From positions 1-41,538 of IMG/VR virus record IMGVR_UViG_3300028802_000159: a stretch of 41,538 nucleotides of DNA; one strand, written 5' to 3'. Positions 956-39,594 of the stretch are shown here, in pieces. The stretch is from a virus. The notes beneath the pieces are model-generated. The model worked only from the letters and a program-made list of their open reading frames with translations. It was not told the origin of the DNA and searched no databases. Position numbers and translations under genes: made by a program. How positions within the stretch are numbered: position 1 is the stretch's first letter; every line of letters starts with the position of its first letter.

Positions 956-2695
956 ATGGCAATTGCGGGTAATCCTTCTATGGATCCCGAGAAATTCCTT
1001 GACTTCATGTACGGTGACGTTGAGGGGTTCATTTATGCACCAACTAAGGATCCACAGACGGATAAATGGCAAACTCATTGGTTCCGTAACCCTAGTGATA
1101 GAAAACCGGCTATAGAGCATTTTCGTACTCAATCTCCACTTCTAGAGGTCTATTTTGGGCCGGCATTGTACTCAGAACAGCGAGCAACTAAGGAATTTGT
1201 CCTAGGGTCTAATGTTGTGTGGACAGAGTTCGATGGAAACATTCCGAAGGACTGGAAAGAGATTCCGCCGCCCACCATGCGCATACAGTCCAGTGAAAAT
1301 GGTTTTGAACACGTTTACTGGCGCTTGAATGCATTTGAGCATGATATCAAGGTGATAGAGCGCATAAATCGGTCAATCACCTTTAGTTTGGGCGCGGATG
1401 GTTCATCGTGGGATTGCACACAAATCCTTCGGCCTGTCGGGACTTTGAATCATAAGCACGATGGTAGGCCGGTAATTTCACTGACAAACAACGCAATCGA
1501 GTACGATGTAGAGATTTTTGGTAGAGTACCCGAGCCCCCGAGTGTCGCATTTGCGATAGACACAGATAGCCTTCCAGCAGTTATGGATGTTATTGCTAAG
1601 TACAAGTGGAGTCCTACTGACTTCAATTTCTTCAAAGGCGCAGTTAAGCAGCCTGATAGATCGTCTAGCCTTATGCGACTCGCATATATTTGCTGTGAGT
1701 TGCATATGTCTAATGAGGAAGCCTATACAATCCTCTATAACGCTGATGAGCGGTGGAAGAAATACTATAAACGTCACGACAGGCGCGAGCGTTTGCTTGA
1801 CCTTATCACTCGTGGTAGGGCCAAGTACCCGCTCGAAAGTTCCGAGAATATTGGTGGTAAGTACGTTGGCTACCAGTGGGGAGACTTCCTTAATTCCGAA
1901 GTTAAAATTGAGTGGCTTATTCCTGGAGTTTTACAGCGCAAGGGTTACTTCCTACTTACCGGCCCACAAGGTATTGGTAAGACTCAAATCAGTATGATGT
2001 TCGCGCAACATATGGCTATAGGAAAAGATTTTATAGGTTGGCAGTTCGGGAAGCCTAGCAAGATTATATTCTTCTCTATGGAGATGGGCTTTGCTGATCT
2101 TAAGTGGTTTGCTGAGCAACAGAAGAAGTTATTTACGCCCGAAGAACTAGACCTACTACAAGAGAATCTAAAAGTATATCCATTAGGTCATGGCGTACCT
2201 CTCGACGATGAACAGGAGCAAGCAGAGATTGAGTACCTCATCAGAGAGTTCAAGCCCGCAGGTATCATGTTTGATTCACTCGGACTCTCTACCCTTGATG
2301 AACTTGGGCAAGAGAAGGCTGCGAAAGGGATTGCTGCCTTCAATGCAAAGATCCGCGAAGAGTATGATTTGTTTGTGTGGTTCATACATCATCACAGAAA
2401 AGCCCAGGCAACCAATAAGAAACCCAACAAGTTAGAAGATATCTTCGGAAGTATCTACGTCACAGCAACAGCCACAACTATTGTGTCTCTCTGGCAGGTA
2501 GGAGACGATGTTGAGGTCAAGAGTCTTAAGGTCCGTCTGTCTAAACCTTTTAGTCCTTTTCTTATCAGGAGAAACCAGCACCTAGGATTTGATAGAGTCG
2601 AGACTAACTTGAAAGGACTTGAACCCGCACCATTAGAGGAAACAGTAGAGGAAGGAAGTGAAGATGAAGGATCAGGTCCTTTTGACCTCAGCTGA
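956..2695 (+). CDS. DNA primase-helicase (AEP-like primase fused to RepA/DnaB-type ATPase)
   Basis: This 579-residue protein joins two replication activities. The N-terminal part resembles archaeo-eukaryotic-type primases: an acidic EFD pair near residue 92, an EHVYW histidine motif near 119, and LRPVGTLNHK near 160. The C-terminal half is a RecA-fold ATPase: GPQGIGKT Walker A (about 336-343), FFSMEMG, and a Walker B strand ending in MFDS (about 438-441), then FIHHHRK. It would prime and unwind the phage fork for the polymerase encoded next. In-frame GTG 941 and TTG 947 are alternative starts; a GAGGGTGATC ribosome-binding-like stretch overlaps GTG 941, so ATG 956 (or TTG 947) is preferred. 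Its 3' end overlaps the polymerase start. The primase activity is inferred from weak motifs; the ATPase is clear. Confidence 0.85.
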   Translation: MAIAGNPSMDPEKFLDFMYGDVEGFIYAPTKDPQTDKWQTHWFRNPSDRKPAIEHFRTQSPLLEVYFGPALYSEQRATKEFVLGSNVVWTEFDGNIPKDWKEIPPPTMRIQSSENGFEHVYWRLNAFEHDIKVIERINRSITFSLGADGSSWDCTQILRPVGTLNHKHDGRPVISLTNNAIEYDVEIFGRVPEPPSVAFAIDTDSLPAVMDVIAKYKWSPTDFNFFKGAVKQPDRSSSLMRLAYICCELHMSNEEAYTILYNADERWKKYYKRHDRRERLLDLITRGRAKYPLESSENIGGKYVGYQWGDFLNSEVKIEWLIPGVLQRKGYFLLTGPQGIGKTQISMMFAQHMAIGKDFIGWQFGKPSKIIFFSMEMGFADLKWFAEQQKKLFTPEELDLLQENLKVYPLGHGVPLDDEQEQAEIEYLIREFKPAGIMFDSLGLSTLDELGQEKAAKGIAAFNAKIREEYDLFVWFIHHHRKAQATNKKPNKLEDIFGSIYVTATATTIVSLWQVGDDVEVKSLKVRLSKPFSPFLIRRNQHLGFDRVETNLKGLEPAPLEETVEEGSEDEGSGPFDLS

Positions 2696-4487
2696 TTTCG
2701 AGTTTCTCATCCACAGTCTAGAAGGAGCAGAGTATGTCGCATTGGACACCGAAACAACTATCAATGACCTACGGGATGGACGAGGTTATTGTCTTGGAAG
2801 TTCTGTATCATTCCCCTTCGAAACTGAAATACAAAGGGGTCGAATGTCAACTTATCTTCCGTTCAAACACGCCCTTGGAGATAATTACGGTCCAGTTCAT
2901 CTCGCTAAGTTAAAAGAGGTAGTAGAGAAGCAGAACTGTATCATCTTCCACAATGCTCCGCATGACCTGTTTTCTCTACGCACCCTAGGGATAAACTATC
3001 GGGGGAAGTTCTACGATACGTTACTCATGGCTCATATGGTCAATGAGAATTGGCCGAGCAAGGCGCTTGACTGGCTGACTCAAAATGTTTTGGGTGCTGA
3101 CGGAAAGTTACGCGAGCCAGCCTTCAAAGACTTCATCAAGAAGTTTGGTTGGAACGGTCTGCCAAGCAACTTGGTATATGAATATGCCGTACATGACTCT
3201 GATATGACTCTGGACTTGTTCGAGTATCTACTACCTATGTTCATAGAGCAGGGTTTCGATGGAGAGATTTGGGAGGTTGAGCAGCGATGGGTCAGACTCA
3301 TTATGAAGATGGAGCAATCTGGAATAAAGATTGACCAAGAGTTGTGTGCTGAGCAGATCGAACTTGGCAAGGAAACTATGGCTACTATCGTTGCTGAGTT
3401 AGGGTTGAACCCTAGTAGTAGATTAGACCTTGAGCGTTTGCTGCTACTAGAGTTGAGCCTTCCGGTTATGGAGTGGACACCACAAGGTAAGCCGTCATTC
3501 ACCAAGAAAGCAATGCAGGCTTATGAGTTATTGCTATCTGATCTAGGTGACAACAAGACAGCGCAGATGGTACTAGAGTTTCGTGGTTGGCAGAAAACAG
3601 TGAGTGCAAACTATCAGTCCTACATGAATCTTATCTCTCCTGACGGACGCCTCCGGCCACACTTCAAGATTCACGGTACTACGACAGGAAGGTTGTCTTG
3701 TGAGAAGCCTGCGCTACAACAAATACCAAGAGTTTCTGACAAACCCTGGAACGGTAGACTACACCAGGCATTTATACCACAGCCGGGGTATCTCCTATGG
3801 GAACTGGACTATAGTCAGTTGGAGTTACGTCTCGCGGCAGCGTATGCCAAGGAGAAAAGACTTCTGGACATTTTCAATGCCGACGAGGATCGAGATATCT
3901 TTACCGAAATGGCGAAGGATCTCAACTTTACTAGGCATGATACTAAAACCCTAACGTATATGATTTTGTATACAGCAGGCATAGATAAAATTTCAAAAGT
4001 CTGGAAGGTTAGCCAGACACGCGCAAAGGATATCCGTACCAAGTTCATGCGTACCTACCCAGGATTCCAGCGCATGACAAATATGGCGAGTGCTGTAGCG
4101 GCGCGCCAGCATTACGTTAAGTATTGGACAGGCAGAAGGCGCCACATAGAACACCGCGATGAAGCATACAAAGCATTCAACGCTGCAATTCAGGGTGGCG
4201 CCTTCGAGATTGTCAAGCGGAGGATGATCGCAATTGATGATGCGATGCCAGACCTGCGGATGCTACTACAGATCCACGACTCCATTGTTGTTGAGATTCC
4301 AGAGGGCCAGGAGACTGTACTCCTTCCTCAGATACAAGCCATAATGGAAGATACTCCGAAAGAGTTCGGAGTCAGGTTCAAAGTGGAGGTGAAGAAATGG
4401 GGAGGGGAGAAGTGGACGCCGACGGATATTGTATCCACGAGTTCAAGCCTGACGAGTGTGCCTTCTGTCGAGGTAATTGGAAGTTAG
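2664..4487 (+). CDS. polA: DNA polymerase I-type (family A) with 3'-5' exonuclease
   Basis: The 607-residue replicative polymerase has a proofreading domain and a family A palm, with no 5' nuclease. Exonuclease motifs: DTE (residues 28-30), HNAPHDL (96-102) and YAVHD (174-178). Polymerase motifs: TGRLSCEKPALQQIPR near 340-356, motif A DYSQLELR (382-389), motif B with Arg424, Lys428, Tyr432 and Tyr436, and motif C IHDS (537-540). Tyr432 matches the T7-type Tyr at the sugar-selecting position. Motif C is HDS rather than the usual HDE, and the glycines after the two motif B tyrosines are missing. ATG 2664 follows GGAAG at a good distance and is chosen over the in-frame GTG six bases earlier. It overlaps the primase-helicase gene, so the two are coupled. 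Confidence 0.95.
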   Translation: MKDQVLLTSADFEFLIHSLEGAEYVALDTETTINDLRDGRGYCLGSSVSFPFETEIQRGRMSTYLPFKHALGDNYGPVHLAKLKEVVEKQNCIIFHNAPHDLFSLRTLGINYRGKFYDTLLMAHMVNENWPSKALDWLTQNVLGADGKLREPAFKDFIKKFGWNGLPSNLVYEYAVHDSDMTLDLFEYLLPMFIEQGFDGEIWEVEQRWVRLIMKMEQSGIKIDQELCAEQIELGKETMATIVAELGLNPSSRLDLERLLLLELSLPVMEWTPQGKPSFTKKAMQAYELLLSDLGDNKTAQMVLEFRGWQKTVSANYQSYMNLISPDGRLRPHFKIHGTTTGRLSCEKPALQQIPRVSDKPWNGRLHQAFIPQPGYLLWELDYSQLELRLAAAYAKEKRLLDIFNADEDRDIFTEMAKDLNFTRHDTKTLTYMILYTAGIDKISKVWKVSQTRAKDIRTKFMRTYPGFQRMTNMASAVAARQHYVKYWTGRRRHIEHRDEAYKAFNAAIQGGAFEIVKRRMIAIDDAMPDLRMLLQIHDSIVVEIPEGQETVLLPQIQAIMEDTPKEFGVRFKVEVKKWGGEKWTPTDIVSTSSSLTSVPSVEVIGS

Positions 4488-4935: not shown

Positions 4936-5398
4936 GAATAATCCAAATCACTATCTCTGTGTAGATCCCGGAGGTAGCACAGGCTGGGCCACCTTCAATG
5001 AAATCGCTCTCCCGACAGGGCGGGGAATTGAACGGGGTGTTGAAAACTTCGCCAAGTGGATGAACGAATTGGATCCCCCGCCAGTTCTGATTATCTATGA
5101 GGACTTCCGACTGTTTGGGCATAAGGCAATTGCCCAAGTCGGATCCAAGATGGAAGCATCACAAGCGATAGGCATAATTAAAGCGGCTGCTACGCGATGG
5201 AACTCGGCAATGATCGCGCAGCAGCCGCAGGCTCATAAGTTAGGCGCCATGTATTCAGGCAAGAAACCTGGGGCGCACGCTAACTCTCACGATATTGTGG
5301 CCTATAACCACGGTATCTACTACTTAACACAGCACGGACTAATTGACAGCCGCCTGTCGAAGCGTAAGTTAGTTAACCCTGCAAACAAACGTACATAG
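4934..5398 (+). CDS. RuvC-like Holliday junction resolvase
   Basis: The 154-residue protein has an RNase H-like fold of the RuvC type: VDPGGSTGWA with the first catalytic Asp11, IIYEDF with Glu56, and the C-terminal SHDIVAYNHGIYYL with Asp120. Such phage enzymes cut branched DNA, either resolving recombination intermediates or clearing junctions before packaging. ATG 4934 follows TTTGGAGGTTTTCTC, a strong ribosome binding site, so upstream in-frame starts are rejected. It is the last plus-strand gene of the replication block; its 3' end overlaps the convergent collagen-like gene by 26 bases. Confidence 0.85.
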   Translation: MNNPNHYLCVDPGGSTGWATFNEIALPTGRGIERGVENFAKWMNELDPPPVLIIYEDFRLFGHKAIAQVGSKMEASQAIGIIKAAATRWNSAMIAQQPQAHKLGAMYSGKKPGAHANSHDIVAYNHGIYYLTQHGLIDSRLSKRKLVNPANKRT

Positions 5399-5930
5399 TG
5401 ACTTGTCCGCCTGGTGCGTTGAGTACCAACTCACCGGGTGCAAATCCAGCAGGACAGACTAATGCGGTATTCGCGGGGCCTGGTAATCCGACGGATCCCT
5501 GCGGGCCTGTCGGACCAGTAGGTCCAGGTGAGCCCGGAGTTCCATTAGTTCCTGGTGAACCTTGTAAACCCTGCGGGCCAGATTTCCCAGGTCTACCGCG
5601 AGGTCCGCGAATTCCGCGTAAGCCTCTCGGTCCAGAAATACCTTGAGGTCCCGCTGCTCCTTGGCTGCCATCTATTCCATCCTTTCCCGGTTCTCCTTTG
5701 GAGCCGGGATTTCCTTTTGGACCCACTTCTCCGGGGGGACCGGCTGGTCCCGGAACTTGTACTGTAATCGTAGACGTAGGAGTCGGCGTCGAAGTTTTGC
5801 TAGGCGTGGGAGTCGTTGCACTTTCCGCCTCAGGAAGAGTAGCCGCACCTACAATTGCGCCGACGGCTAGTACGCCAGCAATACTATAACCTACGACGGG
5901 TCTACTTGTCACCCAATTCAGGAGTCCCAT
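5373..5930 (-). CDS. Membrane-anchored collagen-like protein
   Basis: The 185-residue protein has four parts: a short N-terminus and hydrophobic segment (about 13-31) that should anchor it in the membrane; a Thr/Pro/Ser linker (about 37-60); 31 uninterrupted Gly-X-Y triplets (61-153); and a compact C-terminus with two cysteines (159 and 182). Gly-X-Y repeats form collagen-type trimers, and phages often carry them in tail fibres. Here the anchor and the position as last gene of the late operon, right after the holin-like gene, suggest a cell-envelope or lysis role instead. The start overlaps the holin-like frame. It is transcribed against the RuvC-like gene and overlaps its end. Confidence 0.8.
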   Translation of the reverse strand: MGLLNWVTSRPVVGYSIAGVLAVGAIVGAATLPEAESATTPTPSKTSTPTPTSTITVQVPGPAGPPGEVGPKGNPGSKGEPGKDGIDGSQGAAGPQGISGPRGLRGIRGPRGRPGKSGPQGLQGSPGTNGTPGSPGPTGPTGPQGSVGLPGPANTALVCPAGFAPGELVLNAPGGQVTMYVCLQG

Positions 5931-7405: not shown

Positions 7406-10400
7406 TGCTCTGCTTCTTTGCCAGAATCACGTCCGATGCTTTCTTCTTCTTTGGAGTAGTTGCTACGTCCTTAGTGTATGGGCCGGTGTCCTTTAATCCC
7501 ATACCTGTCATCCAGTTAGCAAGTTGTACTGGACTAAATGCAGATCCAGTTTCTTTCTTTCGATAGTACCCAGCACCAAAGGGCTCATTCCCACCTAAGG
7601 GATCCCTACCAGAAATCTGAGTGTACTGTGCAGTACCTGGGAGATTCGTAGCAAAGTATTGAGACTGGTCCTTGATTTCCTTATCTCCAAAGAATTGCTT
7701 ACCCCGAAACTCTTCGATAGGCATTCTTAATAATGGGTTAGTTTGACTCATTACCTGTGCGCCAATAGTACTGGGTCTACCACTAAACATTTCAGCAATG
7801 GCAGTTGGAGGAAGAACGTTAGCACTCCCTACACCATAGCCGCCAAACTTTGGAAAGCCTGGCACGTCCATACCTGGCGCAAATGATGGGCCAATCCCAG
7901 ATTCTCTAATCCAATCCGGCCACGCCTTGTCTGCCGGGAATGGGTCAGCAAATGTACCTGGGTCAATTCCCATCATCGTAGCCCAGGCTGCTTGAGCCTT
8001 AGGAATTGCTACGAGTTTCTTGGGGTTGTGAACAATCCCCTCTACCATCAGGGGAATAGCCTTACGAGTCCACGAATAGAATGGAATCAGCAAGCGCATG
8101 TTTCTGCGCTCAAAGTTAGTTAGATCAGTACCATCAGGGTGCCACTTACGAACAGTTGCCGCTGCATCGTTTAATACGTTATCCGTAATCTCGCCCTTGT
8201 GCTTAGAAAGAATGTCAATGAACATCGCATAGCGAGAGTGATTCTCTGTCTGCTCAGAAACTACACGGCCCCACTTCTCAGCAGTCTTAGCAATTGGTAC
8301 ATGACTTAGCCACGTTCTGCTAGCCCCAGCAATATCTTCTGCGCTGTGCGCGCCGATGATGATTCCCTTTTCCTTAGCTGCTAGGAACACCTGCTGGACA
8401 TTCATCGTAGTACCGTTCTTACCCTTAGACTTTAAGATAATCTTGTGAGCATCTACGTCACGCGCCATAGATCGAGCGTAGGCACCGGGACCTAGTACAT
8501 CTTCAATGTTATCTAGATCCTTGATAACAGAGTTTGCGTACTTGGATACATCAGCAGCCTTAAAGTAAACTCTAGGATTGTTAACGCCCTGCATCCAATT
8601 GAGGAACGTATTGCCAATGTTATTCACAACATGGTGCCGAGGATTCATCACAGTGAACACAGTCTTGTAAGCGCCCATAGAGTTCTCTAGCAACTTACGT
8701 CCCTGTGAACTTGGCTGCTTGAGTTCCTCTAACTTACGCAATGCTACACTCATCTGCTCGGCAACATCCTTCGTGAAGTAGTGACCAGCAATACTCTCTG
8801 TTCCTGTACCAGTGAGTTTGTAGGTGTGCTCGCCGCCTCGTTCTAACTTACCGAAGTTCTTTCCTACATCGTACATAAATGAACGATTAAGCATAGCCTG
8901 TTCAACAGCGTGACGAACCTCAGCCATATGCTGAGTAACGTCATCAACTTGCTGCCATTGTGCAGACTCAAGCCAACGAGAACCTTCTGACAAATCTACC
9001 TTACGGTTCTGTACGTCGTAAGCATACTTGCGCATCTGGGATCTAGACCCAAGGATCCGCAACTCACGATTCACTTCATCCATTGTTATGCCACTACGGA
9101 GAGCCATACTCTGACCTTCAACTACGTTCTCTGCTAATCCTGTTGCGCGCAGAGTATTATCCCACATAGCCTTCATTGCGACAGCCGCTTCATTATCTGC
9201 TGCTGGCATTCCACTACGAAGAAGATCGTGCGCTTCTCTAAGTTGCTGCTTTGTAAATCTCTTCTCTAACTGAGTTAGGTAACTCCTGAACATATTTGTC
9301 TGATCCTGACGGTACGAGATATTCCTCAGCATTGCCTGGTGTAGATCCGCAGACCCTCTATGGGGCTTAAAGGCACCAGCAAATCTACTCCAGATTCCAT
9401 GCTCGACCGCTCTTGAATGAACGTCGTGTACTTGCACGTCTAAAATCTCAGGAGCAGATGCTCCCCCATTCAATTCCGTGGTTAACTCGTCAGCGGCACG
9501 ACGAACACCCGCATCCGCAGGATCTGCCTTGATAGTTCCATTAGCAATTGCAGAAGCACGGTCCAAGAACACCTGACCCTCAGGAGTTTTGGGATACTTC
9601 ATAGCGGCCGCTGCTGCTCTAAAAGTTTTGATGCCGGAGTCCGACATACCTTGCGCTCTAAGAACTCTCTCGTTAATATTTACACGCTTAACAATAGCAT
9701 TCGCTACCTCAGCATCAGATCCATTAAGCGCAACTTCTCGTGCTACTCTAGAGATATCCTCTAAGATAGGCTGCATCATCTTTGCTTCCTTGATGGAAGT
9801 TGCAGCCTCACCAGCATTCATCATCTGGCGCACGGCGTTAATAAACCCAGGCTTGCCACGAACTTCCGCAGGTAAGGTTGCGCCCTTTTCCCCTGCGAGA
9901 TATCTGGCAGTCTGGGTTGCGTACTTAGAAAGCGTGTGTAAATGTGAAACATCACCAGCAGGAAGTTTCTTCCCACGGTTGAACATCTTCTCGAATCCCT
10001 TGCGCCCACCAATCATGTCCTCAATATCAAGGATATTCCAATCGTGGCCCAACTTATTCTTGGGAGAAACGCCCTCTCTCGACAGGCGCTCCATCGCCGC
10101 CCGAGCAATTGCTGAAGCATTGCTGGCTGAGTACGCAATATCCTTAGCCTCTTGCGGAGCGTTCTTCTTGCCTTGTTCGGCAATTATCTTCCGCGCCTCG
10201 TTACGGATATTCTGTACCAAGTCAGCCTGTTCAATTGGATACAGATTCTTTGAGCCATGCTTATCCATTGCTCTGTGTGCAATGTCGCGCTCAACATCTG
10301 TTAACTCTTCAATTGTTCTGATCGGCTTATTCCCACCGCCTGTCGTGCCTGCGTTCCCTGCCATAGACTTGAGAGGATTACCAGCACTATCAATTGCAAG

Positions 10401-11873
10401 GTTAGCGAATAGATCACCCTGGGCTGCGTCATCCATAATCTGATGCGCTGGCTGGCTAGCAGCCAATCCCTGCATAAAGTCACCCTGCGCATGAACATTG
10501 CGCGAGGCTACCATTGGCCCAAGTAACTCTCTTACCTTAGCAGAAGTAGCAGGCTGATTACCTAATGCTTCCTTAAGTGTTGCCAACTCTTCGTGGGTTA
10601 CACCATTCTTCAACAGCGCATTGTCGAAATTCTTAGAAACAGGAGTCATTACTCTGTTGCGAAGTTTAGTTCTTGCAGCCTTAATCTGAGCAGGTGTAGC
10701 ATTCTTACCTACCATCTTACTTAGCGCAAGATCATGCTCAGCAGTAGGAGCCATCTTACCAGCAGCATTACGCTGGAAGAAAGTCTGACCTTCCTTTAAA
10801 GTATAACCAGTACCAGGGTAATCTGGAACCTGACTAACCTGCCTAGTAGCAGCCTTGCGAGCATTCAGATTCTTTGCGACTGCCGCACTAGGAGATTCAG
10901 GGCCAAACTTCGGGCGCAAATCCTCAGTAAAGAGCGCACCCTGACCCTTCATCCTATGAGTTTTCTGGATGACAGTATCAGCAGGCTTTCGCTCTGGGCC
11001 TAAGTGAATCGCCGGCTCTTTCTCACCGAACAGATTTAATTGCTCGCCTGTCGTAAATGGCTGCCGATCACCGGAAGGTAATCCCTTGTCAGCCTTCTCT
11101 AAACCTTCAATTGCCTTAGCACCCTTACCGAGACTCTTTAATTTGCCAGTAGACTTGAGCGCCTTGATAATTGCGCCACCGGGGATATAGGTGAGGGGGT
11201 CCGCGCCAATGTCAATTCCAAATCCAACAGCGGCTTTACCCCACTTGTTATCAATCCCAGCAGCCTTAGCAATCTTGGCCCCTGAAACCTTTTCCTTCCC
11301 CGAGAATCCCTTCCAGAAATCATTGGCGCCTAAAGCGAGTCCGACAGGCGTTGCGTTTACAAGTGCCTTGATCGCTTCGCCTGGACTGAATCCATCCTTG
11401 GAATCCTTCTTAATGTCACGAAGGTTATGTAGCACAACATTCTCTACACCATACATCGGACGAGCAAGTTTGTCCATTGTCCAGTTGAATGCAGACCAGC
11501 CAGACTTGAGAATATTTCCAGAGTCAGAAGCAGGTTCTGTCAGTGGGCTGACAGAACCATAGTGAATTGTCGAGGGAGTGAATCCTCGAACGGTTGCCAA
11601 GGCTAAGTCGTACTCAGAAGGCGCGGCAGTTTGTTGTAGTTTTGCGGAAATACTATCCCAAAAATCCGGGCTCAAAGGCTTGGCAATTCTGTCATAGGGT
11701 GTAGTGATTTTAGTCCCTGTGAACAGAGGATCGAACCAAGGATTGTCGGCCCTGTTCCATTTCTGGCCTGGGCGTCCGGGCTGCATCCGAGTTGTGTAAC
11801 CGTATTTATCGCCCTGATGTTGCCCGCGTCGCTCTAATACTGCTGCCGCAGCCTTCTTGTTCTTCTTGGGCAT
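7395..11873 (-). CDS. Large (1492-residue) virion protein, probably internal/ejected
   Basis: By far the longest gene of the window. The protein is largely helical and soluble, with no signal peptide. Two segments recall very large structural proteins of short-tailed phages: GFGIDIGADPLTYIPGG near residue 220 and RRNMRLLIPFYSWTRKAIPL near 1260. No protease, nuclease or polymerase motif was seen. Its place between the amidase and M15 peptidase genes, in the late operon of a phage without a tape measure, suggests a protein packed in the head and ejected with the DNA, or a structural scaffold for tail extension. The function is inferred from size and context only. Two pairs of the CGACAGGCG word fall in this gene, one copy of each pair on each strand. 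Confidence 0.7.
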   Translation of the reverse strand: MPKKNKKAAAAVLERRGQHQGDKYGYTTRMQPGRPGQKWNRADNPWFDPLFTGTKITTPYDRIAKPLSPDFWDSISAKLQQTAAPSEYDLALATVRGFTPSTIHYGSVSPLTEPASDSGNILKSGWSAFNWTMDKLARPMYGVENVVLHNLRDIKKDSKDGFSPGEAIKALVNATPVGLALGANDFWKGFSGKEKVSGAKIAKAAGIDNKWGKAAVGFGIDIGADPLTYIPGGAIIKALKSTGKLKSLGKGAKAIEGLEKADKGLPSGDRQPFTTGEQLNLFGEKEPAIHLGPERKPADTVIQKTHRMKGQGALFTEDLRPKFGPESPSAAVAKNLNARKAATRQVSQVPDYPGTGYTLKEGQTFFQRNAAGKMAPTAEHDLALSKMVGKNATPAQIKAARTKLRNRVMTPVSKNFDNALLKNGVTHEELATLKEALGNQPATSAKVRELLGPMVASRNVHAQGDFMQGLAASQPAHQIMDDAAQGDLFANLAIDSAGNPLKSMAGNAGTTGGGNKPIRTIEELTDVERDIAHRAMDKHGSKNLYPIEQADLVQNIRNEARKIIAEQGKKNAPQEAKDIAYSASNASAIARAAMERLSREGVSPKNKLGHDWNILDIEDMIGGRKGFEKMFNRGKKLPAGDVSHLHTLSKYATQTARYLAGEKGATLPAEVRGKPGFINAVRQMMNAGEAATSIKEAKMMQPILEDISRVAREVALNGSDAEVANAIVKRVNINERVLRAQGMSDSGIKTFRAAAAAMKYPKTPEGQVFLDRASAIANGTIKADPADAGVRRAADELTTELNGGASAPEILDVQVHDVHSRAVEHGIWSRFAGAFKPHRGSADLHQAMLRNISYRQDQTNMFRSYLTQLEKRFTKQQLREAHDLLRSGMPAADNEAAVAMKAMWDNTLRATGLAENVVEGQSMALRSGITMDEVNRELRILGSRSQMRKYAYDVQNRKVDLSEGSRWLESAQWQQVDDVTQHMAEVRHAVEQAMLNRSFMYDVGKNFGKLERGGEHTYKLTGTGTESIAGHYFTKDVAEQMSVALRKLEELKQPSSQGRKLLENSMGAYKTVFTVMNPRHHVVNNIGNTFLNWMQGVNNPRVYFKAADVSKYANSVIKDLDNIEDVLGPGAYARSMARDVDAHKIILKSKGKNGTTMNVQQVFLAAKEKGIIIGAHSAEDIAGASRTWLSHVPIAKTAEKWGRVVSEQTENHSRYAMFIDILSKHKGEITDNVLNDAAATVRKWHPDGTDLTNFERRNMRLLIPFYSWTRKAIPLMVEGIVHNPKKLVAIPKAQAAWATMMGIDPGTFADPFPADKAWPDWIRESGIGPSFAPGMDVPGFPKFGGYGVGSANVLPPTAIAEMFSGRPSTIGAQVMSQTNPLLRMPIEEFRGKQFFGDKEIKDQSQYFATNLPGTAQYTQISGRDPLGGNEPFGAGYYRKKETGSAFSPVQLANWMTGMGLKDTGPYTKDVATTPKKKKASDVILAKKQSNAK

Positions 11874-26559: not shown

Positions 26560-26848
26560 TCTCTCCTGCCAACTTGTTGTTCTCCGACAGGGCCGAGGCT
26601 AACTTCTCTTGAAGAACAGCCTCTTGACTTGGGGCTAGATACCCTAGATGATTCGCAATATCAATAATACAGAGAGCGCAGAAATACACAGCGCCATAGA
26701 AATCAAGATAACATCCAATATCGACAAATGGCCGTCCATCACCAGGGGCTCCACAAAGTACACACTTTGCGGGCTGCATAACTGGACCTGGGAGAACTTG
26801 TACTTTATCAGGACCGCCGTACTCGATCCTCATATCTGGAAGTGACAA
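26321..26848 (-). CDS. Zinc-motif protein with helical C-terminus
   Basis: The 175-residue product has CVLCG (about 29-33), then GCYLDFYGAVYFCALC (about 45-60): paired cysteines that could hold zinc. A helical region (LQEKLASALSENNKLAGENDNF) and an acidic, Ser/Asp-rich end follow. It precedes the membrane-protein and portal genes. The last 239 bases are double-coded. No family recognised. The two cysteine pairs suggest a small metal-binding assembly factor. Confidence 0.65.
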   Translation of the reverse strand: MSLPDMRIEYGGPDKVQVLPGPVMQPAKCVLCGAPGDGRPFVDIGCYLDFYGAVYFCALCIIDIANHLGYLAPSQEAVLQEKLASALSENNKLAGENDNFRNIIGTVLSFTATERDDFIFRYQEFLQWRDSQGPLEVTQSTGSDDKRNDVEDNQQGSSDVPDARNNESEQLEFDL

Positions 26849-29613: not shown

Positions 29614-30974
29614 TAGGTATTCACAGCCCTTGTACTAAATTGCTGTTCACTTAAATTGAAGTTTGCGCCTGCGGCTAATGTAGTAGAGCATGATACAAGA
29701 CCTGTACTCGCAGTTATATCATATCGAAGATGTGCCTGCACGCCACCTGAGTCAGTCCAACCACTTAAAATTTCAGTAGCCGGAGGTCGGTATCCAACAG
29801 GTAGGGTAAATAAAGATGCTGCCGCATTAGCAGTTCTTAAGACCCCTCTAAACTGTACTGCATCACCATCTAGAGATTTTCTAATTTGAGGTTCTGTGAA
29901 AGATCCACCAATCCAGGCAACTCCCGAGGCATACGCAACCCCTGCTGCTGCAAAAGTTTTCCAAATATCCCAATATCCTGCCATAATGTTAACCCAGGGC
30001 ATCCAGGCTAGAGTTGAACTGTTCCAGTTTCGCATGAGACAACCGTTTGTTGCTGCTACTCGACATTCCTGAGAGCAGTTGTTACCATCTTTGTAGGTGA
30101 TAATCTCAGAAGGAACGACAGGCCAACCGTCGCCGGAATTCGTAGCATTCATCAGCGACGTGCCAGGATCGTAATAAGCAGGTGTAGTTACTGCGGGCCA
30201 ACGGTTAGGATCGAGCATCCAGCAGTTTCCGCCAGGACCAGCAGGAACACTCGTGTCTACCCACAAATCTCTCAGACCACTTGGTAAACTAGCGCCGATA
30301 TAGACCTCATCATCCGCTCCACCACCTGCGCCAGACATTAAACCATTAACTTTATTGAACTTAACTACTGATAGATGGGCTATCCCGCCACTTACTCTAT
30401 TTTCTAATTGGAGCGTCCCACCTGAGGTTCTCCATTGCATTTTAACAGTAACAATCCCTGCTGCAATATCACCGGCTACAACGGTGTAGGGTATATGTAT
30501 TGAAGCTGAACATGCAACTCCTGCTGAGACTATATAAAATTCTGCTGTCTTTTTAAGCGATCCTGCAACAACAATAGAACATAGACCAGTTTGTCCCGCT
30601 ATACTGTTATAGAATGAGGCTGAAAACTCAATATATAGTTGATCCCCAGCAGACGCCGCTACCGCCAGTGTAAAACCAGCCATATCTACAAAAGTGGTAC
30701 TCGTTGTAGAAGGCTCTGTTCCGACAGGCGAGGAACTAACTGCTGTCAGCATGTTTGCAGAATCTACTTGTGGGGCTGTCGGATAAGTTAGAGTTTTCGA
30801 CGTAAATCCATCGTGAACATGGTCACCGGGAGAAGATTGGTCGTGACGAATCCCTAGCGTGTGATGTTGTGCCGATACGTCAGTATCTACGTCGGATTTA
30901 GAATGTAGGATGTTAACTTCGCGTGCTGTCGGAGCAACAAGTATATCCTTCGTGTAATCCTGCGGCTCGGTCAC
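29613..30974 (-). CDS. Tail fibre protein
   Basis: The 453-residue protein begins with DYTKDILVAPTAREVNILHSKSDVDT, an N-terminal part like a virion attachment segment with HHTLG and HVHDG. Beta-rich domains follow: a jelly-roll-like region (about 90-215), then GLRDLWVDTSVPAGPGGNCWML, and a C-terminal region with WMPWVNIMAGYWDIW and a beta-sandwich of the SLDGDAVQFRGVL type. No enzyme motif for a depolymerase is evident. It is likely part of the same fibre complex as the collar protein encoded next. Confidence 0.75.
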   Translation of the reverse strand: MTEPQDYTKDILVAPTAREVNILHSKSDVDTDVSAQHHTLGIRHDQSSPGDHVHDGFTSKTLTYPTAPQVDSANMLTAVSSSPVGTEPSTTSTTFVDMAGFTLAVAASAGDQLYIEFSASFYNSIAGQTGLCSIVVAGSLKKTAEFYIVSAGVACSASIHIPYTVVAGDIAAGIVTVKMQWRTSGGTLQLENRVSGGIAHLSVVKFNKVNGLMSGAGGGADDEVYIGASLPSGLRDLWVDTSVPAGPGGNCWMLDPNRWPAVTTPAYYDPGTSLMNATNSGDGWPVVPSEIITYKDGNNCSQECRVAATNGCLMRNWNSSTLAWMPWVNIMAGYWDIWKTFAAAGVAYASGVAWIGGSFTEPQIRKSLDGDAVQFRGVLRTANAAASLFTLPVGYRPPATEILSGWTDSGGVQAHLRYDITASTGLVSCSTTLAAGANFNLSEQQFSTRAVNT

Positions 30975-31618
30975 GATAACTCTCCGACAGGGCTGGGTGT
31001 TTGGGCCGACGGAACTTGCGCTCCGCTAATCTGTCCCAACTCTTCCGCAACTGCTTTCAAAACTTCGGGATCTGGAATATGACGGTAGAGAATGTCGAGA
31101 ATTTTCATCATCAGGAACTCAATGTTGACTTCACCAGCAGTTTTGCTCGACCAACGACCACTGATTTCATAGAACAACTTGATGCTAGCCAGATCGCCAT
31201 TCTGAATGTTACGAGTCAATGCAGCGTGGGCTTCTGGCATAGCATCAGAGAACAATTCCTCAGAACGTTTCGATAGGTAGTCCTTAAAGGCTTTTTGCTT
31301 CAACCAGGCTGAATACTGGCGTGGCGAGATCCCTAATCTCTTCAATTTCTGCCCGGGGGTTGCTAAGTCACCAAAATCTAGCAGAGTATTAGCCAGCGCC
31401 AACTGTAGGGGGTTTAGAAGTTTTCCTTCCAGCGGGACGTTAATGCCACGGTTCTCACAGGCTTCCTGAAAGCCCGCAGATGCGAGAACCTTCCGCACGG
31501 TATCGTTGGCAAGTCCAGTTTCTTTGATGGTCTGGTTAATTGTTGGGACTCTGTTTTCGAGGAACCAACATTGCTCGAAGAAAGTGAGGACTGTGAGTTC
31601 GTCATGCGCTAGTGGCAT
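30971..31618 (-). CDS. terS: Terminase small subunit (probable)
   Basis: The 215-residue protein has two helix-turn-helix-like regions: TINQTIKETGLANDTVRKVLAS (about 26-47) and GQKLKRLGISPRQYSAWLKQKAFKDYLS (about 88-115). A helical oligomerisation part follows (HAALTRNIQNGDLASIKLFYEISGRW). This is the layout of small subunits that bind the packaging site. It is second in the late operon, with the large subunit two genes downstream. The assignment is from architecture and position. The first HTH could mean a regulator instead. Overlaps both neighbours. Confidence 0.7.
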   Translation of the reverse strand: MPLAHDELTVLTFFEQCWFLENRVPTINQTIKETGLANDTVRKVLASAGFQEACENRGINVPLEGKLLNPLQLALANTLLDFGDLATPGQKLKRLGISPRQYSAWLKQKAFKDYLSKRSEELFSDAMPEAHAALTRNIQNGDLASIKLFYEISGRWSSKTAGEVNIEFLMMKILDILYRHIPDPEVLKAVAEELGQISGAQVPSAQTPSPVGELS

Positions 31619-32117
31619 TTCTAATCCCCATTAGGCCGTCTAAGTCATCCTCAGTTAAACCTGCGTCGAGCAGAGCCTCAGCAATCTGACCAGGAAGTTT
31701 GGCGTAGGGATAAGCAGATTCGAAGCGATGTAAAGTTGACTGTGAAACGCAAAGGCTGGTGCAAAAGTTCGCCTGTGACGGCCAATTCCGTATACGCCAC
31801 GTCAAGAAGTCAAAGTTCCCGACAGGCGGGAGTGGTGCTAGGTTTTCACGGACAGTGTGCTGCCAGGCGAAATACTCGTCTCGGATTTCGGAGTGGTCTA
31901 AACCAAGGGCTAGTGAGACTTTCCCGAGAGGTTCTGCAAAGAGACCTTGTTCTAATCGGAGCACGGATAATCGACTTATTCCAGTTCGTTTTGCCACATC
32001 AGCCTGAGAAAGCTTTTGCGACAGGCGGGCTTGCCTATAAGGATTCAAGTTATCACCGTCCGGTGAAACATGGGGATGGATGGAATTGGGCGAAAGATTG
32101 ATCGAGTAGAGAGGCAT
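31602..32117 (-). CDS. Tandem helix-turn-helix DNA-binding regulator
   Basis: The 171-residue product has two XRE-type HTH regions: YRQARLSQKLSQADVAKRTG followed by ISRLSVLRLEQGLF (about 27-60), and SQANFCTSLCVSQSTLHRFES (about 113-133). It is the first gene after a consensus late promoter, with TAGGAG before ATG 32117. It could repress or set the level of its own operon, or bind the packaging region together with the next gene product. Two CGACAGGCG words lie inside this gene (31820 and 32019). Confidence 0.75.
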   Translation of the reverse strand: MPLYSINLSPNSIHPHVSPDGDNLNPYRQARLSQKLSQADVAKRTGISRLSVLRLEQGLFAEPLGKVSLALGLDHSEIRDEYFAWQHTVRENLAPLPPVGNFDFLTWRIRNWPSQANFCTSLCVSQSTLHRFESAYPYAKLPGQIAEALLDAGLTEDDLDGLMGIRNATSA

Positions 32118-33460: not shown

Positions 33461-34345
33461 GTGACCAAGCGAGAGAGTAAGATTCAGGTAGAGCAGGCGG
33501 AGGGTCCGCAGGCCGAGAGCGAGGAGTCGATCATGACCGAGGCAGACACAATCACAGAGGCGGAAGCCGCCGAGATTGTCGAAAGTGACGAAGAGTCAAC
33601 GGAAACCGAAGAGATTGCGGAGCCCGCTCCCAATCTCGACGATCTTCCCGAGGGCAAGAAAGTTCTCGCCCTGGGAATCAAGGCAATGGCAGAGGCTGCG
33701 CAGACGGATTACCTCCGTGTCTACGCAATCCTGAATGCGCAGGGCGACCCCGAGAAGTTGCTGGCCGCCGCGCGGGAATCTTCCGAGGACGAGAACGTCA
33801 TCGCAAAGGTGACGGAAGCGCGGGAATTGCAGGAGAGGGTCGCCGCGATTCTCGCAGAGGCGGACGAGATTCTTCGAGAGACGAACGCCGTGGACGTTCT
33901 CTCGGACGAAGATCTCGCAGCCAAGCGCGAGGAACTGGACGGATTCAAGCAGACGTTCTTGGATTCCGTGAACTACGGAGACGAGCACGTCGTGGACGGA
34001 TTCGGGCGACTCTTCGAGGATCTTCCCGGGATGCGCAAGCGGCGCGCAAAGTCTGCTGGCGGGTCGGATTACACGATGACAACGTCGATCAAGCCAAAGG
34101 TCGCGGAAATCACCGTGGACGGAACCGACGTCAAGAATGACAAGGGAAACGCGACATTCACCTACCTGTCGCAGTATCTCAAGAAGATGTCAGGAACCGC
34201 CGTTCCCGTCGGGGATCTTCACAAGGCCTGGCTCGCGGCCGCTGGCACGGACAATGTCGAAGAGGTGAAGGATGACGTGTTCTTCACTTTCCCGATCGGC
34301 GAGAAGTCCTATCAGGTGAAGATCGTTCCGAAGGAAGCCGCCTAA
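33461..34345 (+). CDS. GC-rich cassette gene 3, acidic 294-residue protein
   Basis: GTG start with AGAAAGGG six bases upstream. Residues 1-65 are very acidic and low in complexity (EADTITEAEAAEIVESDEESTETEEI region), followed by helices (LLAAARESSEDENVIAKVTEARELQERVAAILAEADEIL). A separate C-terminal domain of about 85 residues (MTTSIKPKVAEITVDGTDVK to the end) has beta strands and WLAAAG. Codons strongly prefer G/C at the third position compared with neighbouring genes, as expected for a highly expressed or recently acquired gene. A strong terminator follows. No family recognised; acidic N-termini of this kind occur in DNA-mimic and nucleoid-associated proteins, but that is only a suggestion. 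Confidence 0.8.
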   Translation: MTKRESKIQVEQAEGPQAESEESIMTEADTITEAEAAEIVESDEESTETEEIAEPAPNLDDLPEGKKVLALGIKAMAEAAQTDYLRVYAILNAQGDPEKLLAAARESSEDENVIAKVTEARELQERVAAILAEADEILRETNAVDVLSDEDLAAKREELDGFKQTFLDSVNYGDEHVVDGFGRLFEDLPGMRKRRAKSAGGSDYTMTTSIKPKVAEITVDGTDVKNDKGNATFTYLSQYLKKMSGTAVPVGDLHKAWLAAAGTDNVEEVKDDVFFTFPIGEKSYQVKIVPKEAA

Positions 34346-34461: not shown

Positions 34462-34576
34462 CGCATTGTTAAGTGTTAAGTTAGCCCGAGATTAGCAAGC
34501 GCACGAGCACGACAGGCGTTGTGAATTAGCTCACGCTAATGGCAAAGTTTCAGGCATACAATCTTTTGATCTTCCA

Positions 34577-35554: not shown

Positions 35555-35811
35555 GACGTGCACTAATTCCCCTCGACCCTAGAGATAAGTTGGCCTCCTG
35601 TGGCGTACAAATCTATTCAGCTAGTTTGCCTAGGCCCTGTCGGAATAGAGCCGTAGGCAGGCTGTCCCCTGAATTACATGCAGGACTAATTAGGGCGGGC
35701 GCGAATCTAGATCCTGACAATAGAAATCTCTGTGAGTTGCATGCTGAGGCAATTGGTCAGTTTATCTGGAACACTCCTATTCCTAAGAGCGATCCGAGTG
35801 GAGAGAGTTAA
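35551..35811 (+). CDS. Small Cys/His (treble-clef-like) protein
   Basis: The 86-residue protein has CGVQIYSASLPRPCRNRA (Cys17, Cys30) and LCELHA (Cys61, His64). A Cys, a Cys-x-Asn and a later CxxH are the form of small zinc domains common in actinobacteriophages. It is translationally coupled to the winged-helix gene by an ATGA overlap. Possibly a DNA- or protein-binding partner of it; no function known. Confidence 0.65.
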   Translation: MRRALIPLDPRDKLASCGVQIYSASLPRPCRNRAVGRLSPELHAGLIRAGANLDPDNRNLCELHAEAIGQFIWNTPIPKSDPSGES

Positions 35812-35870: not shown

Positions 35871-35917
35871 GGAGTATACCGAGCAGCACAACAACTAAAG
35901 TCGAGAGGTAGAAAGTC

Positions 35918-37927
35918 ATGAGTGAGAATCTCCCCGAGAAGTCCTCATCCGAGATTGCTGCGGATCTTGTCAAGTTCAAGCAGGAAATGGAGGCGCTGAG
36001 GGAACTCATTCAGCCATTTCTAGACAAGAAGAATGAGATTCAGGGTGAGATTAAGGATCACCGACAGGAGATTGAGCGTCTGAATGCTCTCTCTTTGTCT
36101 ATTGATATGAAGGTCAAGGATTCCAAGGAGAAGATGAAGTCTCTGGAATTCGACCTCAGCCGTAAGTCTCGTGAACTAACAGCCGCGCAACAGCGCGATG
36201 CGATCCGTGAGGAATTCGAGGCGAGCAAGAGTGAGTTCGAGCGAATCACCGCAGGTGCCCCCTGGCGAGAGTTTGCCTTCGATCACCAGATTAAAGGTGC
36301 CATGCATCTTGCCGCTGCCCGTAGAGGAATTCTCGGTGACAAGCCAGGATTGGGCAAATCACTCACAAGTATCATATGGGCTGACATGCTTAAGTCCGAG
36401 CGCATTATTGTTGTCCTACCCAAAGACACAATGTCCAATTTCAAACGCGAATTGGAGCATTGGGCTCCTCATCGCTCGGTGTTCCCCATCGGCGGTGAGA
36501 AAAAGTCCACCAGAAATATCATGCTCAACATGCTCAAGAGTATGCCGAACTTCGTGGCGCTATTCAACTACGATGCATGGCGACGTGACGCTGATTTGCT
36601 GGATGATATCATTGCCTTGAAGGCTGATACGATTATCGTCGATGAAGCGCACAACATGAAGAACTTCTCAACTCTTCGGGCGCGCGGGATTCGCAAGATA
36701 GCACTCACGGCTAACGCTTGCTTCAATTGTGGGGCGGACGTAAAGATTGCTAGTGTGCAGGGTAGTTCATGGAAAACCACCTACGAGTGCATCAATGCTG
36801 ATTGCAAGACGCAATCCGAAAACGCATTCGACTTCTGCTCCATCAAGAATGTCATGCCCATGACTGGCACGACAATCGTGAACAAGCCACAGGATTTATT
36901 CCCCATGCTGAATCTCGTTGACCCGGTGACATTCCCGTCCGAGATTGCATTCCTCAAGGACTTCTGCTACAAGGATAGCTATTCCAACAAGTGGAAGTTT
37001 ACTTACGGTGGCCAAGAAAGACTCATCAAGAAACTACAGACTCAGTTTCTTGTGCGCACACGTAAGGATGCAGGAATCATCCTACCCCCGCAGGACGTGC
37101 AGGTTCACGAGATTGAGTTCGATCACGAGAAGTATCCTGAGCAGTCAAAGGTGCTCAGCAATCTCAACACCTATGCTCAGATTGCGATTGATGATGAGTC
37201 AGCGTATGGAATCCTCTACATCATTGAGTTGATTCTACGCAAGCGACAGGCGTTGGTCTGGCCTGATTCAATTCAGATCAAGAACCCGCGGACCAAGGAA
37301 GTTCTCTACAAAGTCTCAGCGCACGAGTCAATCAAGGTAGACACTGTGATTCACTACGATGAGGAATCACAGGAATGGTCTGGCCTTATCCCCGATCTAG
37401 TTGGATGGGAAGATGACGCATCTGCTGAGGATATGCTCAATAATGGCGAGAGAATTGTTGTGTTCTCTCAGTTCATTAGTCCCCAGGAAGAAATTCTGCG
37501 CCGCTGCCGTGAGGCTGGGATCGCTGCTGTACTATTCAACGGTAGTACCCCTGACCATATTCGGGAGGATATCAAGATCGACATTGATAAGAACTATGCC
37601 TACCTCAATGGTCGTAAGCCAAAATATCAAGTCATCCTCGCACATTACCAGGTCGGGGGTGTGGGACTAAACATGACTGATTTGAGTCAGATGATTATTC
37701 TCGACAATCCTTGGAACCCTGCTGGTGAGGAACAAGCATACAATCGTATCGACAGGATCGGGCAGACCAAGGAAACTACTGTCCACGTTCTAGAGGTACA
37801 GAATTCCATCGACTCATGGATGCGCAGCGTGATTGAGGACAAGCGCGATATGATTCAGGGATTCGAGAAAGAGCAGTCAGTCGCACAAGCATTCATCGAG
37901 GCTATGCGGAATGGAGAGATTCTCTGA
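35918..37927 (+). CDS. SNF2-family DNA translocase with inserted zinc ribbon
   Basis: The 669-residue protein has an N-terminal coiled coil (about 15-110) and then a superfamily 2 helicase core: GDKPGLGKS (140-148), DEAH (242-245), TGTTIVN (316-322), IVVFSQF, VGGVGLNM and QAYNRIDRIGQ. Members track along duplex DNA and remodel protein-DNA complexes; phage versions are thought to assist replication or recombination. Between motif II and motif III sits an extra Cys4 unit (Cys268, 271, 291, 296), a zinc ribbon not usual at this place. It has its own promoter; its stop overlaps the next ATG. Confidence 0.9.
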   Translation: MSENLPEKSSSEIAADLVKFKQEMEALRELIQPFLDKKNEIQGEIKDHRQEIERLNALSLSIDMKVKDSKEKMKSLEFDLSRKSRELTAAQQRDAIREEFEASKSEFERITAGAPWREFAFDHQIKGAMHLAAARRGILGDKPGLGKSLTSIIWADMLKSERIIVVLPKDTMSNFKRELEHWAPHRSVFPIGGEKKSTRNIMLNMLKSMPNFVALFNYDAWRRDADLLDDIIALKADTIIVDEAHNMKNFSTLRARGIRKIALTANACFNCGADVKIASVQGSSWKTTYECINADCKTQSENAFDFCSIKNVMPMTGTTIVNKPQDLFPMLNLVDPVTFPSEIAFLKDFCYKDSYSNKWKFTYGGQERLIKKLQTQFLVRTRKDAGIILPPQDVQVHEIEFDHEKYPEQSKVLSNLNTYAQIAIDDESAYGILYIIELILRKRQALVWPDSIQIKNPRTKEVLYKVSAHESIKVDTVIHYDEESQEWSGLIPDLVGWEDDASAEDMLNNGERIVVFSQFISPQEEILRRCREAGIAAVLFNGSTPDHIREDIKIDIDKNYAYLNGRKPKYQVILAHYQVGGVGLNMTDLSQMIILDNPWNPAGEEQAYNRIDRIGQTKETTVHVLEVQNSIDSWMRSVIEDKRDMIQGFEKEQSVAQAFIEAMRNGEIL

Positions 37928-38181
37928 TGACAAAGCGAGACGGCCCCTACTACATCAACGATCACGGCCTGTCGGAAGATGAGGAAATCCAACGCATCAA
38001 GAGTGGTAGTCTTTCCTTCAAGATTGTCATTGTAGGGAAGGCTATCCCTCCACAGGATTTCGATGACGATGAGCGATTCGGCGCTAACCTCGCGGATCAA
38101 GTGGATGAGGCAATGTATCCCATCATCGACGAACTCAACAAGAGACTTCCTCATCTAGTTATCTATGGAGAGGTACTGTGA
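37927..38181 (+). CDS. Hypothetical acidic 84-residue protein
   Basis: Start overlaps the helicase stop (TGATG). The product has an alternating beta/alpha form: SLSFKIVIVGKAIPPQDFDDDERFG, then a helix DEAMYPIIDELNKRLP and a final strand HLVIYGEVL. No family recognised. Co-transcription with the helicase suggests a role in DNA metabolism. Confidence 0.7.
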   Translation: MTKRDGPYYINDHGLSEDEEIQRIKSGSLSFKIVIVGKAIPPQDFDDDERFGANLADQVDEAMYPIIDELNKRLPHLVIYGEVL

Positions 38182-38695: not shown

Positions 38696-38705
38696 CGGGA
38701 GAACG

Positions 38706-38758: not shown

Positions 38759-38788
38759 TCTTGTCCTACTACAGTCAAGGAGTTCACA

Positions 38789-39392: not shown

Positions 39393-39594
39393 AGCACGGA
39401 ATCATTCAGCATCGTCGAATCGTAGGCGTGCGCCGCGTAAACTTTCGCTTACAAGAAAGACGCCGCCTGTCGTAATCATTAAGCCCGCAACTAGGGTTTG
39501 GACTACAGCCCTAGAGATTGCTGGTGGTGACACTAGGAGATTGGAACCTCTCCCTGATGGAACCGTACTTATTCACAATGAGAGGGTGCGTTAG
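39385..39594 (+). CDS. Hypothetical basic protein, 69 residues
   Basis: ATG 39385 lies within the end of the preceding gene. The first half is very basic and disordered (ASSNRRRAPRKLSLTRKT); the second half has beta strands (PPVVIIKPATRVWTTALEIAG, LPDGTVLIHNERVR). Could bind nucleic acid. One CGACAGGCG word (reverse orientation, 39464-39472) is in this gene. No family recognised. Confidence 0.55.
   Translation: MSEARNHSASSNRRRAPRKLSLTRKTPPVVIIKPATRVWTTALEIAGGDTRRLEPLPDGTVLIHNERVR

What the first reader, a model, noticed from the sequence alone, without database searches (positions are those of the whole stretch)
1777..39472. CGACAGGCG is strongly over-represented across the whole window
Fifteen exact copies were found by reading; a random 9-mer should occur about 0.3 times on both strands of 41.5 kb. 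Eleven are on the plus strand irrespective of gene direction, and the word is read in different codon phases and also lies in the non-coding control region, so selection seems to act on DNA. The shorter word CGACAGG is also frequent (roughly 30 copies against about 5 expected). Possible roles: binding sites of a phage regulator (as stoperators in cluster A mycobacteriophages), a Chi-like signal for the host recombination machinery, or a site for replication or packaging proteins. Two copies lie within the tandem-HTH gene and a third just beyond it.
Basis: partly seen in the sequence, partly recalled or inferred. Interest (0 to 1): 0.8.

Follow-up and report, generated by a model that had tools for sequence, protein, structure and literature searches.

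The report
Phage primase landing sites, genome-wide
The repeated nine-letter DNA word is most likely the place where this virus's own primer-making enzyme starts new DNA strands; related viruses carry their own version of the word, so the enzyme's preferred start sequence can be read directly from the genome.

Summary
In detail: CGACAGGCG occurs 15 times (0.4-0.5 expected; 0.46 under a codon-preserving shuffle, maximum 4 in 1,000) and its core CGACAGG 31 times (about 6 expected). It is neither a stoperator nor a host Chi site. Relatives carry different words of one type, NN-ACA-[G/C]: CTACAG, CCACAG, TTTACAG, CCACAC, GCACAC. What carriers share is a primase of the archaeo-eukaryotic (RepB') type, in the window at 941-2695. 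Such a word ranks in the top three over-represented 7-mers in 85 of 95 primase-bearing loci against 1 of 42 controls (P=3e-24). Two phages of one host strain carry different words; unrelated phages sharing the primase carry one. Read on the template strand, the words are 5'-T-GTN: RepB', ORF904 and NrS-1 primases are reported to use GTG; here N is G, A or C by lineage and follows a helix-bundle residue (Tyr275 here; Phe in GTA lineages), though few independent switches exist. Across relatives, sites are evenly spaced on each strand separately (strand-label permutation P about 1e-7), conserved, and replaced when lost. Best reading: primase template sites for Okazaki initiation, with enzyme and word co-evolving. 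No biochemistry was done.

The parts
941..2695 (+). Proposed reader: AEP primase (about residues 15-200) + helix-bundle region (about 230-300) + RecA-like AAA_25 helicase (314-489)
   Evidence: PF13481 E=9e-16; RepB_primase PF16793 in 12 of 14 relatives; profile hits RSF1010 RepB' 3h20/3h25 at E=8e-6 and 5e-5; phrog_3123 E=5e-62
1763..1765 (+). Codon of Tyr275, the residue that best follows the word's variable base (Y in 20 of 20 CG-word rows; F in 30 of 32 CT-word rows)
   Evidence: first of 474 columns
1777..1785 (+). CGACAGGCG, proposed primase site
10080..10088 (+). CGACAGGCG, proposed primase site
11342..11350 (+). CGACAGGCG, proposed primase site
15347..15355 (+). CGACAGGCG, proposed primase site
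16442..16450 (+). CGACAGGCG, proposed primase site
23167..23175 (+). CGACAGGCG, proposed primase site
30722..30730 (+). CGACAGGCG, proposed primase site
31820..31828 (+). CGACAGGCG, proposed primase site
32019..32027 (+). CGACAGGCG, proposed primase site
34510..34518 (+). CGACAGGCG, proposed primase site (intergenic)
37244..37252 (+). CGACAGGCG, proposed primase site
5351..5359 (-). CGACAGGCG, proposed primase site
10337..10345 (-). CGACAGGCG, proposed primase site
11045..11053 (-). CGACAGGCG, proposed primase site
39464..39472 (-). CGACAGGCG, proposed primase site
3682..3688 (+). CGACAGG core copy
5013..5019 (+). CGACAGG core copy
26585..26591 (+). CGACAGG core copy
28215..28221 (+). CGACAGG core copy (CGACAGGCC)
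30116..30122 (+). CGACAGG core copy (CGACAGGCC)
30985..30991 (+). CGACAGG core copy
36062..36068 (+). CGACAGG core copy
37750..37756 (+). CGACAGG core copy
1433..1439 (-). CGACAGG core copy (CGACAGGCC)
5506..5512 (-). CGACAGG core copy (CGACAGGCC)
15212..15218 (-). CGACAGG core copy
18619..18625 (-). CGACAGG core copy
24563..24569 (-). CGACAGG core copy (CGACAGGCC)
34165..34171 (-). CGACAGG core copy
35636..35642 (-). CGACAGG core copy
37968..37974 (-). CGACAGG core copy (CGACAGGCC)

Best explanation
The word marks template sites where the phage's own archaeo-eukaryotic-type (AEP, RepB'-like) primase-helicase (941-2695) starts primers, mainly for repeated lagging-strand (Okazaki) initiation. 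On the template strand the site reads 5'-CGCCT-GTC-G-3': the primase recognises GTC(G), which replaces the GTG reported for related AEP primases, and starts opposite the T just 5' of it, giving a primer that begins 5'-AGGCG. Shown by computation here: the over-representation, its link with the primase gene across phages, lineage-specific words, and, across relatives, even per-strand spacing, conservation and turnover. Inferred: that the primase physically reads the site, the exact start nucleotide, and that Tyr275 in the helix bundle reads the changed base.
For: (1) Every primase-bearing relative examined closely has its own over-represented NN-ACA-[G/C] word. A word of this type ranks in the top three 7-mers in 85 of 95 AEP-bearing loci against 1 of 42 controls, P=3e-24. 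(2) Co-occurrence: AEP is found in 20 of 20 word-positive and 0 of 5 word-negative genomes; the RecA-like helicase, PolA, Sak4, Cas4 and SNF2 each break the pattern. Zuko, picked as a negative, had the word and then proved to hold the AEP domain. (3) Unrelated phages of Pseudomonas, Serratia, Yersinia, Brevundimonas, Desulfofustis, Gordonia and Mycobacterium with a homologous primase have the word. (4) The word class follows the primase tree: 10 changes on 79 rows against 38.6 for shuffled labels. (5) Residue 275 is the first of 474 columns in separating CG- from CT-word lineages. (6) Same-strand spacing is even: strand-label permutation z=5.3-5.7, complete genomes alone P=0.0014, while control words are clumped. 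(7) Sites are conserved 114 of 224 against 66 expected, with 70 gains. (8) RepB', ORF904 and NrS-1 primases are reported to use 5'-GTG-3', in ORF904 and NrS-1 through the helix bundle (PMC4434180, PMC8718748).
Against: There is no biochemical or genetic data. The AEP assignment of the window protein rests on profiles: Pfam finds RepB_primase in 12 of 14 relatives but not in the window's own sequence, and no usable structure model was obtained. The window's own sites are not significantly even per strand (P about 0.26-0.28). No genome shows a clear strand switch that would mark a replication origin. The residue-275 link rests on only 2 (well supported) to 4 independent pairs. Seven of 95 AEP-bearing loci do not show the word among their top five 7-mers. 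SNF2 helicase is also present in all 20 positives, though also in 3 of 5 negatives.
Confidence: 0.85

Rival explanations
1. Binding sites of a phage DNA-binding regulator, as stoperators of cluster A mycobacteriophages: a phage HTH protein binds many dispersed sites and blocks transcription.
For: Many exact asymmetric copies dispersed through genes; HTH proteins at 30971-31618, 31602-32117 and 34925-35554; word specificity varies between relatives, as repressor specificities do.
Against: The word type follows an AEP primase in phages of unrelated families and hosts, and no gene family other than AEP and SNF2 is shared by nearly all carriers without breaking the pattern. Same-strand even spacing is not expected of double-strand operators. 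The HTH gene 30971-31618 matches terminase small subunits.
Confidence: 0.05
2. Chi-like or other host-determined signal: the host recombination or segregation machinery reads the word.
For: Short asymmetric word, over-represented on both strands, like Chi.
Against: Phages of one host strain have different words: Jasmine and Molivia on Arthrobacter ATCC 21022, Nonagon and Shrew on Curtobacterium NRRL B-729. PatrickStar on Gordonia, without the primase, lacks a word of the type.
Confidence: 0.02
3. The word is read by another protein of the shared replication/recombination module (SNF2-type helicase, Cas4-like nuclease, Sak4-type ATPase, PolA or the RecA-like helicase), for instance a phage-encoded Chi analogue.
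For: These genes often travel together with the primase; SNF2 is present in all 20 word-positive genomes.
Against: SNF2 is also in chi, F8 and PatrickStar, which lack the word. Sak4 is in phiHSIC and FP_Lugh without the word and is not detected in the window. PolA is not detected in Nonagon; Cas4 not in Molivia or Nonagon; the RecA-like helicase not in Molivia, Nonagon or Zuko, all with the word.
Confidence: 0.06
4. Compositional or codon artefact, or chance.
For: Parts of the word (CAG, GGC) are common in coding DNA.
Against: Codon-preserving shuffle mean 0.46 against 15; near-absence of most one-mismatch neighbours; conservation above same-composition words; 35 random viral loci give 1 top word with ACA[CG].
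Confidence: 0.01

Closest known systems
AEP (archaeo-eukaryotic) primase recognition: RSF1010 RepB' (GTG in ssiA), pRN1 ORF904 (template 5'-GTG-3'), NrS-1 PrimPol (5'-TTTGGTTA-3' and 5'-GTGA/GTGG-3')
   Same: Same primase superfamily by profile; template-strand words contain GTG in the CCACA[C/G] lineages; a helix-bundle domain follows the catalytic domain and in ORF904 and NrS-1 is needed for site recognition.
   Different: In the window and most relatives GTG has become GTC or GTA; sites are 6-9 nt and strongly over-represented, tens per genome and evenly spaced per strand, whereas RSF1010 has one ssi per strand and is thought to use leading-strand mode (PMC4434180).
T7 gp4 primase sites 5'-(G/T)2GTC-3'
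   Same: Short template sites for Okazaki initiation with primers beginning with A; similar working density (about 26 strong sites and about 3 kb Okazaki fragments, PMC12839067; about one CGACAGG per 2.7 kb per strand here).
   Different: T7 primase is a DnaG-type enzyme unrelated to AEP; its sites are 5-mers selected from about 177 candidates on the lagging-strand region (PMC12839067); no over-representation is reported in the passages read.
Stoperators of cluster A mycobacteriophages
   Same: Many dispersed asymmetric exact sites; specificity differs between relatives.
   Different: Stoperators are read by an immunity repressor as duplex DNA (own knowledge); here the word type follows the primase and spacing is regulated per strand.
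Chi (RecBCD) sites
   Same: Short, asymmetric, over-represented.
   Different: Here the word is phage-specific, not host-specific.

Membership tests
AEP primase, RepB'-like (RepB_primase, PF16793) | Catalytic domain profile and motifs (DxD, SxH, conserved PGTxNxK region) | tested here: met
   PF16793 in 12 of 14 family members (not the window itself); profile hits PDB 3h20 and 3h25 at E=8e-6 and 5e-5; D98, H124 and W127 invariant in 39 relatives
AEP primase, RepB'-like (RepB_primase, PF16793) | AEP fold with following helix-bundle domain | tested here: inconclusive
   Single-sequence AlphaFold2 model unusable (pLDDT 32); the aligned job was interrupted and could not be rerun. Conserved W-x-K-[FY]-x-x-R region seen in alignments
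AEP primase template site | Recognition motif 5'-GTG-3' or a variant, with initiation just 5' of it | tested here: inconclusive
   Word pattern fits: template-strand words are 5'-T-GTN, N = G, A or C; motif from PMC8718748 and PMC4434180. The window itself has GTC, not GTG; the start point was not measured
AEP primase template site | Primer synthesis at the word by the cognate enzyme | not testable with these tools
   needs purified protein
AEP primase template site | Presence follows the primase gene, not host or other genes | tested here: met
Stoperator system | Word read by a phage repressor shared by carriers | tested here: not met
   no regulator family is shared by the carriers at the sensitivity used; phages sharing the primase but otherwise in unrelated families have the word
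Chi site | Word fixed by the host's recombination enzyme | tested here: not met
   different words in phages of the same host strain

The most novel reading that the evidence does not exclude
The sites are not only selected but partly written by the enzyme: an AEP primase that lays down DNA-containing primers with a fixed 5' sequence, whose primers are retained, would convert near-matches into perfect sites. That would explain the rarity of one-mismatch neighbours and the per-strand even spacing as a self-propagating mark that changes whenever the primase specificity changes.
Probability: 0.07. Interest if true: 0.9.

Novelty: new variant of a known kind. Interest (0 to 1): 0.77.

Why it matters
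If right, the start sequence of a whole family of viral primases can be read from genome sequence alone, with tens of sites per genome and natural specificity variants (GTG, GTA, GTC) ready for biochemistry. It would give an in vivo view of how often and where primers are laid on each strand, a question that is hard to answer even for T7, where only a small fraction of candidate sites is used. It also offers a candidate specificity residue in the helix-bundle domain and a simple way to assign AEP primase specificities in uncultured phages. I found no report of such words in the open papers searched.

Tried and rejected
Exact word in nearest IMG/VR relatives: absent, which first looked like a refutation until each relative proved to have its own word. 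DNA-level search for close phage relatives: none. IMG/VR relatives by the window's primase sequence alone: none, the profile was needed. Strand switch marking an origin: no significant changepoint in 16 genomes. Evenness of the window's own sites: not significant. Independent-pairs test of residue 275: concordant but too few switches for significance. NrS-1 record not held under the accession tried, so its word could not be counted. Rfam and tRNA searches of the window: nothing. Considered and rejected: codon artefact, host Chi, stoperator, packaging or recombination proteins of the shared module.
Full report
Observation. CGACAGGCG is present 15 times, 11 on + and 4 on -, at the stated places, and is the commonest 9-mer of the 41,538-base window, an IMG/VR virus record. 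Third-order Markov expectation is 0.42; a synonymous-codon shuffle of 53 predicted genes, with non-coding stretches shuffled by base, gives a mean of 0.46 and a maximum of 4 in 1,000. CGACAGG has 31 copies against 5.8 and 6.2. Of the 27 one-mismatch neighbours 20 are absent. Nothing outside the 9-mer is strongly conserved except a T or C two bases before it. The apparent strand bias is not significant.

What the phage is. The window encodes a phage whose portal, primase and polymerase are distantly related to Cellulosimicrobium DS1, Microbacterium Shocker, Arthrobacter Jasmine/Casserole and the metagenomic ctEqG8; Jasmine is a podovirus (PMC5513430).

The turning point. The nearest IMG/VR relatives lack CGACAGGCG, but counting all words showed that each relative has its own: TCTACAGG (L009), CCGCCACAG (L010), AGCGACAG (DS1), CCTTTACAG (Shocker, 38 against 0.7 expected), TCCTACAGG (ctEqG8), TCCCACAG (Jasmine, Casserole). 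All share ACAG with variable bases before it. Phages of quite different families that were chosen only because they carry a homologue of the window's primase-helicase (941-2695) also have such a word: Pseudomonas PMBT14 and Lebethron, Serratia Serbin, Microbacterium Juicer (GGCCACAC, 41 against 2.8), Gordonia Fribs8 (CCACACC), Brevundimonas Strzyga and a Desulfofustis phage (CCACAGG).

The reader protein. The N-terminal domain is an archaeo-eukaryotic-type primase: the family profile hits the RSF1010 RepB' primase structures 3h20 and 3h25 (E=8e-6 and 5e-5), Pfam finds RepB_primase in 12 of 14 relatives but not in the window's own sequence, and DxD, SxxxxH and WDxxQxLRxPxTxN motifs are conserved. 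A W-x-K-[FY]-x-x-R region follows, then a RecA-like helicase.

Controls. IMG/VR profile searches gave about 110 loci with the primase. Counting loci of 10 kb or more and the annotated phages, a word with [CGT][CGT]ACA[CG] is the top 7-mer in 67 of 95 and in the top three in 85 of 95; in 42 loci without the primase (random viral contigs checked by profile, plus five annotated phages and three SNF2-bearing contigs) it is in the top three once (P=3e-24). Some of the 95 loci are related to each other, so the P value overstates independence; the contrast remains very large. The single exception, L140, is a 30.5 kb fragment whose missing part may hold the gene. Among annotated genomes the AEP domain is in 20 of 20 with a word and 0 of 5 without, while the RecA-like helicase, PolA, Sak4, Cas4 and SNF2 each break the pattern; an all-against-all comparison found only AEP and SNF2 shared by nearly all carriers without gaps, and SNF2 is also in three word-less phages. 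Molivia and Nonagon have the AEP domain with a different C-terminal part and still have words (GCACAC, AGCACAGG). Zuko was chosen as a negative, had the word, and then proved to contain the AEP domain.

Not host-determined. Jasmine and Molivia grow on the same Arthrobacter strain, and Nonagon and Shrew on the same Curtobacterium strain, yet their words differ.

What the word is. Published AEP primases RepB', ORF904 and NrS-1 are reported to use template 5'-GTG-3', in ORF904 and NrS-1 recognised with the help of the helix-bundle domain, and NrS-1 starts mainly one base 5' of the motif (PMC4434180, PMC8718748). On the template strand the words here read 5'-T-GTN: N=G in CCACA[C/G] and GCACA[C/G] words, A in CTACAG and TTACAG words, C in CGACAG words. 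The window's site is 5'-CGCCT-GTC-G, and the implied primer starts 5'-AGGCG; this start is inferred from the literature rule, not measured. Word class follows the primase tree (10 changes on 79 rows, 38.6 for shuffled labels) and CG words appear in at least three separate places in it. Of 474 columns the one that best separates CG- from CT-word lineages is residue 275 in the helix-bundle region: Y in 20 of 20 CG rows, F in 30 of 32 CT rows. Only two well-supported independent pairs exist, so this is suggestive only.

Spacing. Within each strand, sites are more even than random placement (z about 7.5-7.9 over 56-58 genomes and loci). When positions are kept and strand labels shuffled, the even same-strand spacing is lost (z=5.3-5.7; complete genomes alone P=0.0014), whereas control over-represented words in the same genomes are clumped. 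In Nonagon and Shrew the two orientations nearly alternate along the genome. Each strand thus keeps its own regular supply, as expected if single strands are read at intervals. The window's own sites do not reach significance alone. No genome shows a clear strand switch, so forks probably cross the genome in both directions, or both strands are primed; this is inference.

Selection and turnover. Between close relatives 114 of 224 sites are intact against 66 expected from words of the same composition, while 70 sites are present only in the second genome: sites are conserved, and lost ones are replaced.

Conclusion. The best reading is a set of primase template sites for Okazaki-type initiation that co-evolve with the phage primase. 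The kind (primase sites) is known; the long, over-represented, per-strand spaced form and the lineage-specific change of GTG appear new in the open literature searched. Biochemistry is lacking, and structure prediction could not be completed.

Noticed in passing
L013 (Microbacterium phage Shocker), e.g. 522, 538, 680, 695, 721, 879, 1915, 1927, 44321, 44343: A second over-represented word, TACCCTA(A): 25 copies of the 7-mer against 0.8 expected, several shortly upstream of start codons and in terminal regions; also in L098 and L116. Probably a promoter or regulator site.
   Followed up: partly
L081-L105 clade (e.g. L087, L090, L096, L102): The primase gene is split into two neighbouring ORFs, one with the AEP domain and one with the helix bundle plus helicase, in a whole clade of IMG/VR phages.
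   Followed up: partly
L140 (IMGVR_UViG_3300003324_000042, 30.5 kb): SNF2-bearing fragment with a top-ranked NN-ACA-[G/C] word but no AEP primase found on the fragment.
   Followed up: no
window 34585-34625: Intergenic G-run/C-run inverted repeat (ccgtgggggggg ... acccccccactgcgg) in the non-coding region that also holds a word copy at 34510.
   Followed up: no
window 289-882 (+): Uracil-DNA glycosylase superfamily gene directly upstream of the primase-helicase.
   Followed up: no
window 2356, 7709, 10586, 14427, 19632, 26985, 33589, 34009, 36671, 40391, 40997: ACTCTTCG occurs 11 times against 1.5 expected; unexplained second word of the window.
   Followed up: no
L146 (Curtobacterium phage Nonagon): No PolA-type polymerase, Cas4-like nuclease or RecA-like helicase of this module detected, yet an AEP primase with a very even AGCACAG site grid.
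   Followed up: partly
L154 (Gordonia phage PatrickStar): ACAGGAGA/CAGGAGAA over-represented (12 and 14 copies) without the AEP primase; looks like ribosome-binding sites rather than primase sites.
   Followed up: no
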